This document shows positions 4,783 to 25,445 of a stretch of 37,647 nt of DNA, one piece after another (the stretch's first letter is position 1; each line of letters opens with the position of its first letter). The notes beneath the pieces were generated by a model. The model had not been told where the DNA came from. It saw nothing but the letters and a program-made list of their open reading frames with translations, and ran no database searches. Source of the stretch: an uncultured bacterium. Its GTDB lineage: Bacteria; Bacillota_I; Bacilli_A; Izemoplasmatales; Hujiaoplasmataceae. Location of the stretch: positions 1 to 37,647 of the forward strand of contig CAIMSF010000117.1 in assembly GCA_903844055.1 (NCBI GenBank), in the 5' to 3' direction. The position numbers were made by a program, and so were the translations under genes.

Positions 4783-7725
4783 GTGATCAAGAAAAGCCTG
4801 TCCCTTCTCGTACTCCTGCTGTTGACGCTCATCGGCGCCGGCTTCCATGCCGGCGTCGTTTCGGCGTCTTCGCCGGATGCGGGACGGACCGACCGGATGG
4901 TTGGCGAGGCCTACAAGGACGTGTTGCCGGACTGGATCGCGGAGGATTACGCCGACAACTCCGGATTCCTTGCGGTCGTGACGCCATCCTCTTTCAGCGG
5001 GACCATCCCGGCGGCCGACACGCGCGGCTATCACGGCCCGGCGGCCAGCTTCGACGCCGGGGGCGTCCTGACGTTCCATGCGAACGTGCCGACGACCGGC
5101 CTTTACCGCTTCGCCCTCGACTTTTTCCCGCTCGACGACGGCTATCTCGATCCCGAGCTGGCGATGCGGGTGAACGGCGCGTCGCCTTACGCCGAAGCCG
5201 GGCAGATCATCCTCTACAAGAACTGGGACGGCGGGGACGCCTTCTCCACCGATCGTTTCGGCAACGACTTCTACGCTTCGCAGTCCGTCATCGCGTCCTG
5301 GACGCACCAGGCGTTCCAGGACCCGATGGGTTTTCATACCGAACCACTGTCTTTCCTCCTGGAAGCCGGCGACAACGTGGTGGAGTTCCGGCTTCTGAAG
5401 GGGGAGGTGCTGCTCGGCGACGTGACGGTCACCGGCCAGTCCGAACTTCCCGACTACCAAAGCTACCTGGGCGGCGGAACCGCCCTGACCGACGACTTCC
5501 TGCTCACCGTCGAGGCCGAGACCCCGGACGCGAAGAACTCCTCGTCGATCCAGGCGGGCGTCGACCGCGACCTCGGGGTGACGCCGTTCTCGGTGACGGC
5601 GCTAAGGCTCAACGTGCTTTCGGGATCCAGTTTCAACTCCGAACGCGAAACCGTCTCTTACGACGTCGTCGTGCCCGCCCCCGGATTCTATCATCTCTCC
5701 TTCAAGGTCCGGCAGGCCGCCCATGCGAACGCGACCGTCTTCCGCACCCTCCGGATCAACGGCGAAATCCCGTTCGCCGAGGCGGCGTCGCTATCGATCG
5801 GCTATTCCTCCGCATGGCGCAACTTCACCCCCGCGGACGCGTCGGGGACGCCCTTCCTCTTCTGGCTCGAAGCGGGGTCCAACGTCGTCTCGCTTTCCGT
5901 CGACCTGTCGGTCTACCGCTCCACCTACGAGACCGCGCAAACGGTCTTGAAGGCGGTCAACCAGCTGTCGCTCGACATCAAGAAGCTGACCGGCAACCAG
6001 GTCGACGAGGACCGCGACTGGTCGATCGTCGACTACCTGCCCACGGTCGAAGCGGATTTGCGGGCGATGGCGGCGGAGCTCCAGGCCGAGATGGACTATG
6101 TCGACGCCCTGAACGGCACGGCACGGCGCTCCGAAATCGAGTCGAGCCTCCGCCTCTGCATCCGCAATCTGACCATCCTCGCCGACAAGCCCGACGAGAT
6201 CCCGCAGAACATCACGATGCTTTCGACCTCGAGTTCCTCGGTCGCCTCGCTGCTCGGCACCGTCGTGTCGCTGCTCGTGGACAGCCCGCTCGACATCGAC
6301 CGTTTCTACGTGTACGGGAACGCCGAACTGCCCGCCGCCAACGCCGGCTTCTTCGCCCGGGCGTGGCTGGCGATCCGGCGGTTCTTCCTCTCGTTCTTCG
6401 AGGACCGCTATTCCGACGTCGCCGCCGAAGGCGAACTCGAAGTCTGGGTCAACCGCTCGAAACAGTACGTCGACCTGATCCAGAAGATGGCGGACGACAC
6501 CTTCACGGCCGCGACGGGAATCCCCGTCAAGGTCTCCGTGATGTCCTCCGAAAGCAAGCTGATCCTCGCCAACTCCGCCGGACAGAATCCCGACGTCGCC
6601 CTCGGCATCGCCTCCTGGATGCCTTACGACATGGGGATCCGCGGCGCCGTCTATGACCTTTCGGCGTTCCGATCCGATCCGGCATTCGCCGAGACGCTCG
6701 CGCTCTTCAATCCCGAATCGCTGATCCCGATGGTCTACGACGAAGGCCTTTACGGCCTTCCCGACACCGAGAACTTCTACGTCCTGTTCTACCGGACCGA
6801 CATCCTCGAAACGCTCGACCTCGACGTTCCCTCGACCTGGGTGGAGGTCACCGAGATGATGCCGGTGCTCAAGCGCTACGGCCTGGATTTCTACATCCCG
6901 CTGTCCAGCCCTGCCTCGCTCAAGGCGTTCGACGCGACCCTTCCCTTCCTCTTCCAATACGGCTCCACCGTCTATTCCGACGACGCCTTCCATGCGGCGA
7001 TCGACGATTCCGCCTCGATCGACGCCCTCACGATGATGACCGAACTCTATACGATCTATTCGATGGACGTCACGGTTTCCTCGTTCTACAACGATTTCCG
7101 GCTCGGCACCTGCCCGATCGGCGTGGGCGATTTCGGCATGTACGTCACCCTCTTGAACGCCGCGCCCGACATCCAGGGACTCTGGTCGATCGCCCTCCTT
7201 CCGGGCGTCGAGAAGGACGGCGGCACGATCGACCGCAGCGCTCCCGGCGCGGCGACGGCCAACATCGTCTTCGCCAACACGGAATCCCCCGATGAAAGCT
7301 GGGAGTTCCTCCGGTGGTGGGCCTCGACCCCGACGCAGGTGACGTTTGAGAACCTGCTTCTGTCGACCCTCGGCAAGTCCTACATGTGGAACTCCGCGAA
7401 CGTCGCGGCGTTCCTCGCGGCGGGATACACGGCATCCGACGTCGACGTCATCGTCGAGCAGTGGAGCTGGCTGCGCGAACTGCCCAAGGTGCCCGGATCG
7501 TATCAGGTCGAGCTCGAGATCTCGAACCTGTGGAACAGCGTCGTCCTCGAGCGCGCCAACCTGCGCGTCGAACTGAACGACGCGGTGATCCGCGCGAACA
7601 AGGAGATCCGCAAGAAGATGAGCGAGTTCGGGTACGCCGACAAGGCGGGGAACATCCTGAAACCCTACCTGTTGGCCAACCGTTCGCTGATCGACGGGTG
7701 GCTGGACGGAGGTGACGGCGCATGA
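4783..7725 (+). CDS. Large secreted protein: two N-terminal carbohydrate-binding-like beta domains, helical linker, C-terminal ABC solute-binding domain
   Basis: 980 aa, GTG start, signal peptide. C-terminal ~430 aa reads as a solute-binding protein ('[39 protein letters not shown]...[11 protein letters not shown]...[19 protein letters not shown]'). Stop overlaps the downstream permease start (ATGA). Confidence 0.82.
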
Positions 7726-13884: not shown

Positions 13885-14773
13885 GTCCGGCAGGATCCGC
13901 AGGCCGCTCAAGCGCGAGAAGCGGATGAACCTCGTCGGCTGGTCGATGCTCCTGCCGTGGGCGTTCGGCTTCCTCGTCTTCACCCTCTACCCGATCCTCT
14001 CCTCCTTCCGCTACAGCCTCTCCGAGGTCATCCTCGACGGCGCGGGGATCCGGGTGACCTTTGTCGGCCTCGAAAACTACCGCGCCGCGTTCTCCTCGGC
14101 GGCCGGCTTCGCCTTCCTCCAGTCGGTCCTCGACTTCGCCCTCGAGGTGCTCTTCAAGGTCCCGATCATCACCGTCTTCGCGATCATCATCGCCGTCCTC
14201 CTGAACCAGAAGATCAAGCTGCGCGGCTTCTTCCGCGCGATCTACTTCCTCCCCGTCATCATCGCCTCGGGACCGGTCATCAACCAGCTCGCCAGCCAGG
14301 GCGCGGCGACGATCCCGCTCGTCGAGCAGATGGGCATCCTCGACTTCATCAACCGCACCTTCGCCCCCGCCCTCGCCCGGCCGATCGCCGGCGTGTTCGA
14401 TGAATTGATCGTGATCCTGTGGTTCTCCGGGGTGCAGATCCTCCTGTTCATCGCGGCGCTCCAGAAGATCGACCGAAGCGTCTACGAGGCCGCGATGATC
14501 GACGGAGCGGGTCCGTGGGAATCGTTTTGGAAGATCACCATGCCGGCGCTTGCGATGATGGTCCGGGTGTCGGTCGTCTTCACGATCATCAACCTCGCGA
14601 CCTTCTCGGAGAATCCGGCGATCCAGCACATCAGGAGCAACATGTTCGCCCTCGAGACCGGCTTCGGCTTCTCCTCGGCGATCGCCTGGATCTACTTCGT
14701 GGCGCTCGCCCTCATCCTCGGCATCGCCGTCGGCGCCCTGAGCGCCTTCGGCCGGAAGAAGGCGAGAACATGA
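13877..14773 (+). CDS. Carbohydrate ABC transporter permease (LplB/MalF type), second pair
   Basis: 298 aa multi-TM; 'SVYEAAMIDGAGPWESFWKITMPALAMM' EAA loop; 8-bp overlap with upstream gene. Confidence 0.9.
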   Translation: MNESGRIRRPLKREKRMNLVGWSMLLPWAFGFLVFTLYPILSSFRYSLSEVILDGAGIRVTFVGLENYRAAFSSAAGFAFLQSVLDFALEVLFKVPIITVFAIIIAVLLNQKIKLRGFFRAIYFLPVIIASGPVINQLASQGAATIPLVEQMGILDFINRTFAPALARPIAGVFDELIVILWFSGVQILLFIAALQKIDRSVYEAAMIDGAGPWESFWKITMPALAMMVRVSVVFTIINLATFSENPAIQHIRSNMFALETGFGFSSAIAWIYFVALALILGIAVGALSAFGRKKART

Positions 14774-15681
14774 TGGACCTGAACCGCCGGATGAAGATCC
14801 GCCGCTTCTTCCTCGGCAAGGACGGCATCGTCGGCAAAATCGTCCTCTACGGCCTGCTCCTCACGATCGGCTTCGTCTACCTCTTCCCGCTCATCAAGAT
14901 GTTCACGACCTCGATCATGGACCTCTCCGACCTCGTCAACCCGGTCGTCGAGTGGATCCCCACGAAGCTCTACCTCGAGAACTACCGGACCGGCCTGATC
15001 GTCCTCAAGTACGGCTCGACGCTCCTCTTCAGCCTCGCCGTCACGCTCGTCCCGGCGCTCCTCCAGACCGCCGTCACGTCCCTCACCGGCTACGCCCTCG
15101 CGAAGTTCAAGGTGCGCGGCCGACGCATCGTGTTCGCCCTCATCCTGCTCACCTACCTGCTTCCCCAGCAGGTGTACATGATCCCGAAGTTCGTCCTCTT
15201 CGACCAGTTCGGGATCCTCAAGACGGCGTGGTCGATCATCTTCCCGGCCACCTTCGGACAGGGCCTGTCCTCGGCCATCTTCATCCTCATCTTCTACCAG
15301 TTCTTCCGGATCCAGCCGCCCGCGCTCGACGAATCGGCCGAGATCGACGGGGCGAACCCGTATCAGATCTTCTTCCGGATCGGCGTGCCGCTCGCGGCGC
15401 CGGCGTATCTGAGCGCGTTCCTCTTCTCGTTCGTCTGGTACTGGAACGAAACGTACATCTCCTCCCTGTTCCTCGGGACGGACCTGTACACGCTGCAGCT
15501 GAAGCTCTTCAATTTCCAATCGCAGTTCAATCTCGCCACCGGCATCGCCCAGACGGCGACCAACGAAGCGATCCGCTATGCGGCGACGATCCTGATCATC
15601 CTGCCGGTCCTCGTCGTGTATGCGGTCATGCAGAAATGGTTCGTCGAGGGCATCGACAAGACCGGCGTCACCGGCGAGTAA
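14770..15681 (+). CDS. Carbohydrate ABC transporter permease (MalG/LplC type), second pair
   Basis: Frame ends at 15681. ATG at 14770 (MMDLNRRMKIRRFFLGKDG...) overlaps the previous stop (ATGA); 'DESAEIDGANPYQIFFRIGVPLAAPAYLS' EAA loop. The listed 14419 start is an artefactual upstream extension. Confidence 0.92.
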   Translation: MMDLNRRMKIRRFFLGKDGIVGKIVLYGLLLTIGFVYLFPLIKMFTTSIMDLSDLVNPVVEWIPTKLYLENYRTGLIVLKYGSTLLFSLAVTLVPALLQTAVTSLTGYALAKFKVRGRRIVFALILLTYLLPQQVYMIPKFVLFDQFGILKTAWSIIFPATFGQGLSSAIFILIFYQFFRIQPPALDESAEIDGANPYQIFFRIGVPLAAPAYLSAFLFSFVWYWNETYISSLFLGTDLYTLQLKLFNFQSQFNLATGIAQTATNEAIRYAATILIILPVLVVYAVMQKWFVEGIDKTGVTGE

Positions 15682-15696
15682 AGGGAGGGACCCAAA

Positions 15697-17157
15697 ATCG
15701 GCAAGATCAAACTCATCCTATCGCTTCTCCTGGCAAGTCTCCTGACCGGCTGCGTCGCCGCCACGACGGCGACTTCGACCACCGCCGCGACCACCGCGCA
15801 AACGACCCTGACCACGACCTCCGGCGCCGCCACGACGACCGAACCCACCACCCAGACGACGACCCAGACGACCGCCACGCCGTACGTCTACGACCCGATC
15901 GACGTCCCCGCCGAGGTCCTGCTCGAGGAACGGCTCTCCTTCAAGTTCTTCTGGGAGGTCGTCAACGGCGATCCCCAGAGCGCCGGTTACGGGATGATCT
16001 CCGACCGCTACAACTACCAGACCGGCGCCGTCGGCGTCGCCTCGATCGCCTCGATCGGTTTCGGCCTCGCGGCCCTGCCGGCCGGCGTCGAAAACGACTG
16101 GATCAACGACGACGAAGGCTATGAGCGCGCCCTCGGCACGCTCGAGACGATGGCCGGACTGCAGCGCACGCACGGCTTCTACTACCACTTCCTCAACATG
16201 TCCAACGGCGGCCGCGCCGGCTATACGGAAGTCTCGATCATCGACACCGCCCTCTTCATCTGCGGGGCCATCACCGCCGGCGAATACTTCGGCGGCGACG
16301 TCAAGCTCCTCGCCGACGAGATCGCCGCCGGGGTCGAGTGGGACTGGTACTACAACGACGCCCAGCAGGTCTTCTACATGGGCTACTCCCCCGAAAGCGG
16401 CTTCTCCGGCGCCTGGAACATGTACGCCGAGCAGCTGATGGTCTACATCCTCGCCGCCGGTTCCATCGACCACAAGGTCGGCAAGGAGGCCTACGACCGG
16501 ATGAAGTCGCTTGCGACGCGCAAGTCGTACGGCACCTCCGGCGTCTTCTACAACACCCCCGCCGGCACGCTCTTCACCTACCAGTTCGCCCACGCCTGGT
16601 TCGATTCGGGCTCGATGCTCGACGCCGACGGCTACGACTGGTTCGACAACTCGCGCCGGGCGTCGATCGCCGCGTACGAGTACGCGGTCGCGGCCTCGCA
16701 GGCCTACAAGACGCTCTCCAGCGTATCGTGGGGCCTCACCGCCTCCGACGGGCCCGACGGCTACAAGGGCAACTACGGCAACCTGCCCTCCAACGGCGGG
16801 AACTACATCGACGGCACGCTCGCCCCGTGCGGGGCGATCGGCTCGATCGTCTTCACGCCCGAGCTGGTGATCCCGGCGATCCAGCACTACGCCTCGATCC
16901 CCGCCCTCCAGGGCCGATACGGCTTCCGCGACGCCTACAACCTCGGCGTCACCGAAACCGCGCTGCCGGCCGTCCGCCGGCCGGTCGCGCCAATCCCCGA
17001 AACCGGCTGGTTCAACACCGACGTGATCGGCATCGACAAGGGCATCACCGTCCTGATGATCGAGAACTACCGCTCCGGCCTCATCTGGCATTACTTCATG
17101 CAAAACGAAGCCGTCCGGCGCGGCCTCGCCGAACTCGGCTTCACCGTCAAACCCTAG
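15697..17157 (+). CDS. GH144-like endo-beta-1,2-glucanase / 'glucoamylase-family' lipoprotein with Thr-rich linker; apparent ATC start codon
   Basis: Open frame from 15682 gives (M/I)GKIKLILSLLLASLLTGC-VAATTATSTTAATTAQTTLTTTSGAATTTEPTTQTTTQTTATPYVYDPIDVPAEVLLEERLSFKFFWEVVNGDPQSAGYGMISDRYN..., i.e. signal peptide, lipobox LTGC and linker before the listed ORF (15994). RBS AGGGAGGG at 15682-15689. Body resembles the GH144/PF10091-type family ('GFYYHFLNMSNGGRAGYTEVSIIDTALFICGAI'). Confidence 0.8.
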   Translation: MGKIKLILSLLLASLLTGCVAATTATSTTAATTAQTTLTTTSGAATTTEPTTQTTTQTTATPYVYDPIDVPAEVLLEERLSFKFFWEVVNGDPQSAGYGMISDRYNYQTGAVGVASIASIGFGLAALPAGVENDWINDDEGYERALGTLETMAGLQRTHGFYYHFLNMSNGGRAGYTEVSIIDTALFICGAITAGEYFGGDVKLLADEIAAGVEWDWYYNDAQQVFYMGYSPESGFSGAWNMYAEQLMVYILAAGSIDHKVGKEAYDRMKSLATRKSYGTSGVFYNTPAGTLFTYQFAHAWFDSGSMLDADGYDWFDNSRRASIAAYEYAVAASQAYKTLSSVSWGLTASDGPDGYKGNYGNLPSNGGNYIDGTLAPCGAIGSIVFTPELVIPAIQHYASIPALQGRYGFRDAYNLGVTETALPAVRRPVAPIPETGWFNTDVIGIDKGITVLMIENYRSGLIWHYFMQNEAVRRGLAELGFTVKP

Positions 17158-24977: not shown

Positions 24978-25445
24978 TCAACGGTCCCAGCGATAGGTCT
25001 TTTTTGCTTTCAGCGTTTCCAGCTGACAATGGAGGCAGAGCCCGGAATGACAGGTGATCAGCCCGCCGCAGGACGGACAACGCCAGGCTTCCGTCTGGGC
25101 CGCGAGGAAGGCTTCCATGCCTGTATCCCGGATGAAACGAAGATTGTCGACCATGCTCAGATGGTAGTTCGTCCTGTACCGCTTGTCGAGGCGGACGAGC
25201 CGTTCGCACGGAAAAGAAGCGCATTCAAAACAAAACGTTACTTGCCCTTCGCCGATCAAGGCGCAGCGTTTCTTCATGAAGGCGCAGTTCTTTCCGCGGG
25301 GACGGCACCCAGGACAGTAGCTTTTGTGAAAGCCCTGTCGGTTGATGTCGTTCTCCTTCGCCTGATAGCTGACGCACAAGGCGCAGTTCATCCCGCAGGG
25401 CGCGATCAGTTCCGCCCTCATTTTATTCTGCGTGGTCGAATCCAT
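24978..25445 (-). CDS. DUF3795 domain-containing Cys-rich protein
   Basis: MDSTTQNKMRAELIAPCGMNCALCVSYQAKEN...YCPGCRPRGKNCAFMKKRCALI...FCFECASFPCERL; typical DUF3795 Cys pattern plus C-terminal CxxC-(x)n-CxxC. Confidence 0.85.
   Translation of the reverse strand: MDSTTQNKMRAELIAPCGMNCALCVSYQAKENDINRQGFHKSYCPGCRPRGKNCAFMKKRCALIGEGQVTFCFECASFPCERLVRLDKRYRTNYHLSMVDNLRFIRDTGMEAFLAAQTEAWRCPSCGGLITCHSGLCLHCQLETLKAKKTYRWDR

What the first reader, a model, noticed from the sequence alone, without database searches (positions are those of the whole stretch)
15682..15996. GH144-like lipoprotein gene apparently starts at ATC; ORF callers lose its signal peptide
The frame upstream of the listed start (15994) encodes a complete lipoprotein leader (GKIKLILSLLLASLLTGC) and a Thr-rich linker like its neighbours'. 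Between the previous stop (TAA 15679-15681) and the leader there is no in-frame ATG, GTG or TTG. A strong SD (AGGGAGGG) sits 7 nt before ATC at 15697. Either this is a rare ATC initiation (as with infC-type AUU starts), which would limit expression, or a single-base ATG>ATC assembly error or mutation.
Basis: partly seen in the sequence, partly recalled or inferred. Interest (0 to 1): 0.7.

Follow-up and report, generated by a model that had tools for sequence, protein, structure and literature searches.

The report
Sugar-enzyme gene starting at AUC, conserved
A bacterial gene for a surface sugar-cutting enzyme really seems to begin at the rare start codon AUC, because independently assembled relatives share the unusual start; such starts are known from a handful of genes and normally keep protein output low.

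Summary
Confirmed. At 15697 a complete lipoprotein leader opens with ATC, 7 nt after AGGGAGGG. No ATG/GTG/TTG lies in any frame between 15639 and 15993. It is not an assembly error. The same-genus relative (87% nt identity over about 20 kb) also has ATC, while eight other genes of the locus have identical canonical starts in both assemblies. A third relative has ATT, and a fourth has ATC after an SD (with a competing SD-less ATG). These four form one supported clade (99/99); the ten other orthologues in the family use ATG. The catalytic part is under purifying selection (dN/dS about 0.15), the initiator tRNA is an ordinary CAU, and the 16S tail carries the standard anti-SD. In about 388 kb of this genome (306 genes) no other convincing case was found apart from infC. 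Best reading: near-cognate AUC/AUU initiation with fMet, carried by a strong SD beside the permease stop, giving low, IF3-sensitive output. That is inferred; nothing was measured. Following the lead, I found a NusG_II-domain protein starting at AUC/AUU/AUA in 20 of 34 genomes of the same family but ATG in all 15 sister-family genomes. New member of a known kind (infC, pcnB, ccpN, sigR).

The parts
14770..15681 (+). Upstream gene: ABC sugar-transporter permease (BPD_transp_1), ATG start, stop TAA 15679-15681
   Evidence: Pfam PF00528; start codon identical in the same-genus relative
15682..15689 (+). Shine-Dalgarno AGGGAGGG (GGAGG core 15684-15688), directly after the permease stop
   Evidence: sequence; duplex with the anti-SD -12.0 kcal/mol; GGATCACCTCCTTT 16S tail present in this genome
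15697..15699 (+). Start codon ATC
   Evidence: no canonical start triplet in any frame 15639-15993; ATC/ATT at this site in the clade
15697..15753 (+). Lipoprotein signal peptide (f)M/I-GKIKLILSLLLASLLTG|C, lipobox Cys 15751-15753
   Evidence: translation; leader conserved in relatives
15754..15879 (+). Thr-rich linker
   Evidence: translation; present with variable length in all orthologues
15697..17157 (+). Whole coding sequence, 486 aa, stop TAG
16411..17106 (+). PF10091 (Glycoamylase / GH144-type) match
   Evidence: E 1.4e-60
15994..15996 (+). First in-frame ATG, the start an ORF caller picks; internal, deletes leader, linker and the conserved SFKFFWE segment
   Evidence: SFKFFWE lies upstream of it and is present in 13 of the 14 family orthologues

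Best explanation
The gene is a secreted GH144-type lipoprotein whose true start is the near-cognate codon AUC at 15697. A 30S subunit, arriving either directly or by re-initiation from the permease stop 15 nt upstream, is held by the strong SD AGGGAGGG and decodes AUC with the ordinary CAU initiator tRNA, so the protein begins with fMet. Output is lower than from AUG and sensitive to IF3, which sets the enzyme low relative to the transporter. The AUG was lost once in the ancestor of this clade; the start codon now used aligns with Ile2 of the MIKK leader of many ATG orthologues. Shown: sequence, conservation, clade, purifying selection, absence of any local canonical start, normal initiator tRNA. 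Inferred: fMet decoding, coupling, low and IF3-dependent expression.
For: Leader with no canonical start in any frame. Same-genus species has ATC at the aligned codon while eight other genes of the locus have identical canonical starts in both. Third relative ATT (GGGAGGTATCATT-ATT-AAAAAA), fourth ATC after AAGGAG. The four are one clade, 99/99; ten others ATG. SD-anti-SD energy -11.6 to -12.8 kcal/mol in the three unambiguous ATH genes versus -5.5 to -10.5 in the ten ATG genes. dN 0.047, dS 0.317 in the catalytic part against the same-genus copy. CAU initiator tRNA. Anti-SD present. infC starts at AUU in seven family genomes, so a near-cognate start is used by this family. Independent second case: NusG_II protein with ATH start in 20 of 34 family genomes, two of them single-contig. 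Precedent: S. aureus AUU/AUA genes with extended SD give about 10% of AUG (PMC13009471).
Against: No protein or ribosome data. In the fourth relative (G021) an in-frame ATG overlaps the permease stop and could be its start, though it has no SD. The same-genus copy has an in-frame ATG some 27 codons upstream, inside the permease gene. The mRNA shows no special fold (z = 0.87), so no structural element is indicated. The SD strength comparison rests on few genes and one origin.
Confidence: 0.82

Rival explanations
1. Assembly or sequencing error, or strain-specific mutation, of ATG to ATC.
For: The window is a draft metagenome assembly of 206 contigs; the same-genus assembly does contain indel/N errors, in this gene near residue 446 and in recA.
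Against: Same codon ATC in a separate assembly of another species at 87% identity; ATT in a third; other starts of the locus agree perfectly.
Confidence: 0.03
2. The real start is ATG 15994; the upstream frame is not translated and the protein is a leaderless, cytosolic enzyme.
For: First canonical in-frame start.
Against: It deletes leader, linker and the SFKFFWE segment present in 13 of 14 family orthologues, most of which have ATG plus SD and a lipoprotein leader at the upstream site; the upstream segment scores as coding.
Confidence: 0.03
3. No independent initiation: ribosomes enter from the permease frame (stop readthrough or frameshift), making a membrane-anchored fusion.
For: The permease stop TAA is in the same frame as the lipoprotein in this genome.
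Against: In relatives the permease and lipoprotein frames differ, so no single mechanism would serve all; a strong SD at proper spacing would be pointless; no notable structure.
Confidence: 0.03
4. The AUC start is real but is neutral drift, not a tuned or regulated start.
For: Single origin on the gene tree; 20 of 34 family genomes show no close orthologue of the gene.
Against: Catalytic part under purifying selection, dN/dS about 0.15; kept over divergence to about 73% identity; strong SD retained in the three unambiguous cases although spacer and stop have changed.
Confidence: 0.25

Closest known systems
infC (IF3 gene) with AUU/AUC/AUA start
   Same: Near-cognate AUH start behind a strong SD; also found as AUU in this family
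   Different: infC is a translation factor gene autoregulated by its own product; here it is a secreted enzyme with no obvious feedback
cvfC1 (AUU) and ccpN (AUA) of Staphylococcus aureus (PMC13009471)
   Same: Conserved near-cognate starts with strong, extended SD in a low-GC Gram-positive; ccpN start is conserved to Bacillus subtilis
   Different: A small protein and a repressor, not a downstream gene in a transporter operon; those starts were measured, this one was not
pcnB (AUU) of E. coli (Binns and Masters 2002, cited in PMC13009471)
   Same: Enzyme whose output is limited by a near-cognate start
   Different: Cytosolic RNA enzyme (own knowledge); the original paper was not read here
sigR (GTC) of Streptomyces (PMC5472188)
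   Same: Non-canonical start that ORF callers miss, shown to be repressed by IF3
   Different: Codon GTC and a sigma factor; function shown experimentally
GH144 beta-1,2-glucanases such as XcSGL (XCC2207, PDB 8XUL) and CpSGL (5GZH)
   Same: Sequence match over 407 residues, 220.7 bits to XcSGL
   Different: Activity of this protein untested; lipoprotein leader with Thr-rich linker

Membership tests
Genes with a near-cognate (AUH) start codon | No usable canonical start near the N terminus | tested here: met
   No ATG/GTG/TTG in any frame 15639-15993
Genes with a near-cognate (AUH) start codon | Strong SD at proper spacing | tested here: met
   AGGGAGGG, 7 nt; -12.0 kcal/mol; anti-SD present
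Genes with a near-cognate (AUH) start codon | Conserved in related species | tested here: met
   ATC, ATC, ATC (ambiguous), ATT in one clade, 99/99
Genes with a near-cognate (AUH) start codon | Initiation at that codon demonstrated (ribosome profiling, N-terminal peptide, or fusion) | not testable with these tools
   No expression data available
IF3-regulated non-canonical starts (infC, sigR type) | Expression changes with IF3 level or infC mutations | not testable with these tools
   Experiment needed
GH144 (clan GH-S) | Sequence similarity to characterised GH144 members over the catalytic domain | tested here: met
   PF10091 205 bits; 8xul_A E 2.5e-64, family stated in PMC12102758
GH144 (clan GH-S) | Clan-defining Glu/Phe/Tyr (E239, F286, Y367 in XcSGL) present | not tested
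   Alignment printed but residue numbering of the chain was not mapped
GH144 (clan GH-S) | Beta-1,2-glucanase activity | not testable with these tools
   Enzyme assay needed
Bacterial lipoprotein | n-region with Lys, hydrophobic core, lipobox [LVI][ASTVI][GAS]C | tested here: met
   IGKIKLILSLLLASLLTGC (LTGC), pattern scan

The most novel reading that the evidence does not exclude
This bacterial family (an Izemoplasmatales-like group, by the record titles of relatives) has a small set of genes - infC, a NusG_II-domain membrane protein and, in one clade, the GH144 lipoprotein - held under common control of IF3 through AUC/AUU starts, so that IF3 level or growth state sets their output together.
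Probability: 0.2. Interest if true: 0.7.

Novelty: new member of a known kind. Interest (0 to 1): 0.52.

Why it matters
Conserved near-cognate starts are rarely documented: one reconstruction found 1 AUG-to-AUU switch among 61,358 ancestral AUG starts (PMC5622118). This case is an operon enzyme rather than a regulator, is traceable to one loss of AUG within a bacterial family, and sits beside a second, much wider case (NusG_II, 20 of 34 genomes) in the same family. It shows that ORF callers limited to ATG/GTG/TTG cut off the signal peptide here, which changes the predicted location from lipoprotein to cytosol, and it gives natural ATG/ATC/ATT orthologue pairs for testing what such starts do.

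Tried and rejected
Assembly error: rejected by conservation. Altered initiator tRNA able to read AUC: only CAU found at the GGG/CCC initiator stem in this genome; a first pattern with an extra closing pair found nothing in any genome and was too strict. Genome-wide use of AUH starts: the SD-ATH-AAR-AAR pattern gives no excess over its reversed control, and gene-calling scans of 388 kb of this genome and 660 kb of a complete relative find only this gene in the first, and infC and the NusG_II gene in the second (infC of this genome was read directly). RNA structure at the start: none (z 0.87). A lipoprotein in G008 with apparent ATC (L047): not conserved, orthologues appear to use ATG, so left as possible error or single-species case. 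A recA species tree failed to include G000, G001 and G021 through my motif filter and was not used.

Full report
CHECK OF THE OBSERVATION. The sequence is as described: permease stop TAA (15679-15681), AGGGAGGG (15682-15689), seven bases, ATC (15697-15699), then GGC AAG ATC AAA CTC ATC ... CTG ACC GGC TGC, a complete lipoprotein leader with the lipobox Cys at 15751-15753, a Thr-rich linker and a 486-residue protein ending at 17157. The first in-frame canonical start is ATG 15994. I extended the check to all frames: after ATG 15636 there is no ATG, GTG or TTG in any frame until 15994.

NOT AN ARTEFACT. The window is contig C117 of a 1.87-Mb, 206-contig draft genome. Orthologues were found in 13 other genomes of the same family, and their 5' ends were read. 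The ten others have ATG soon after the permease stop. A control over the same locus: eight other genes shared with the same-genus genome have the identical canonical start in both, and only this gene has ATC in both; the stretch is colinear at about 87% nucleotide identity. The same-genus copy has a frame break around an N near residue 446, and its recA is also split, so that break is most likely an assembly fault; it does not touch the start.

EVOLUTION. On a tree of the catalytic part the four ATH genes form one clade with 99/99 support, so the AUG was probably lost once. In the leader alignment the ATH codon lines up with the Ile2 codon of the MIKK leader of several ATG orthologues, suggesting that AUG was lost and initiation moved to the next, near-cognate codon; this step is inferred. 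The catalytic part is under purifying selection (dN 0.047, dS 0.317 against the same genus).

CONTEXT IN THE CELL. The only initiator-type anticodon stem found in this genome carries CAU, and the 16S tail GGATCACCTCCTTT is present. infC starts with ATT behind a GGAGG- or GAGGTG-type SD in the seven family genomes examined (read by eye), so the family uses a near-cognate start on the IF3 gene. SD-anti-SD energies are -11.6 to -12.8 kcal/mol in the three unambiguous ATH genes and -5.5 to -10.5 in the ATG ones. No notable RNA structure was found. Across 388 kb (306 left-bounded genes) this is the only gene with a convincing ATH start lying in coding sequence above every canonical start; the one other ORF flagged, at 25368, does not show an ATH start.

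WHAT THE PROTEIN IS. PF10091; best solved relative XcSGL/XCC2207 (8XUL, E 2.5e-64), which PMC12102758 classes as GH144. It lies after an ABC sugar transporter gene and before another Thr-rich lipoprotein gene. A beta-1,2-glucan substrate is likely but untested.

HOW IT MOST LIKELY WORKS. By established knowledge, AUC and AUU pair with the CAU anticodon at the first two positions; IF3 tolerates only Watson-Crick pairs there and selects against weak third-base pairs (PMC10158994), and represses non-canonical starts in vivo (PMC5472188). In S. aureus, AUU/AUA starts with extended SD gave about 10% of AUG, up to 30% for one gene in rich medium (PMC13009471). Re-initiation next to a stop codon is helped by an SD (PMC2268962). 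I infer low, SD-carried, IF3-sensitive initiation at AUC, possibly coupled to the permease.

A SECOND, WIDER CASE. One hit of the pattern search led to a 166-168-residue membrane-anchored protein with a NusG_II match, present in all 34 genomes of the family. At its aligned start, 15 genomes have ATC, 4 ATT, 1 ATA, 10 ATG, 3 TTG and 1 GTG. In most ATH cases an in-frame stop lies a few codons upstream with no canonical start between. Two single-contig genomes are among them (G018 ATT, G025 ATC). All 15 orthologues recognised in the sister family start at ATG. The tree needs about six switches. In G018, 660 kb scanned, the convincing ATH starts are infC and this gene. In the window's own genome this gene starts with ATG. 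I found no description of this in the papers searched, which is a limited library.

VERDICT. It is a new member of a known kind: a conserved near-cognate start. The regulatory meaning is open.

Noticed in passing
L170-L205 (all 34 family genomes), e.g. L205 (G025), L200 (G018), L179, L194: NusG_II-domain membrane protein starts at ATC/ATT/ATA in 20 of 34 genomes, often behind AGGTGAT-type SDs, ATG/TTG/GTG in the rest, ATG in all 15 sister-family orthologues recognised.
   Followed up: yes
L049-L055: infC of this family starts at ATT behind GGAGG/GAGGTG-type SDs.
   Followed up: partly
L047:1514 (G008:C202): Another lipoprotein with a strong SD followed by ATC AAG AAA; orthologues appear to use ATG, so a single-species case or an error.
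   Followed up: partly
L004 (G001 contig C28) and L089/L092 (recA): The same-genus assembly has frame breaks in this gene (at an N) and in recA, pointing to assembly faults in that record.
   Followed up: partly
4783-4788: The solute-binding-protein gene upstream starts GTG ATC AAG AAA with only a weak SD; the GTG is conserved in the same-genus species.
   Followed up: no
L002 (G000:C128): A paralogue of the GH144-type enzyme (41% identity) with an ATG start and no leader, apparently cytosolic; also present in many relatives.
   Followed up: no
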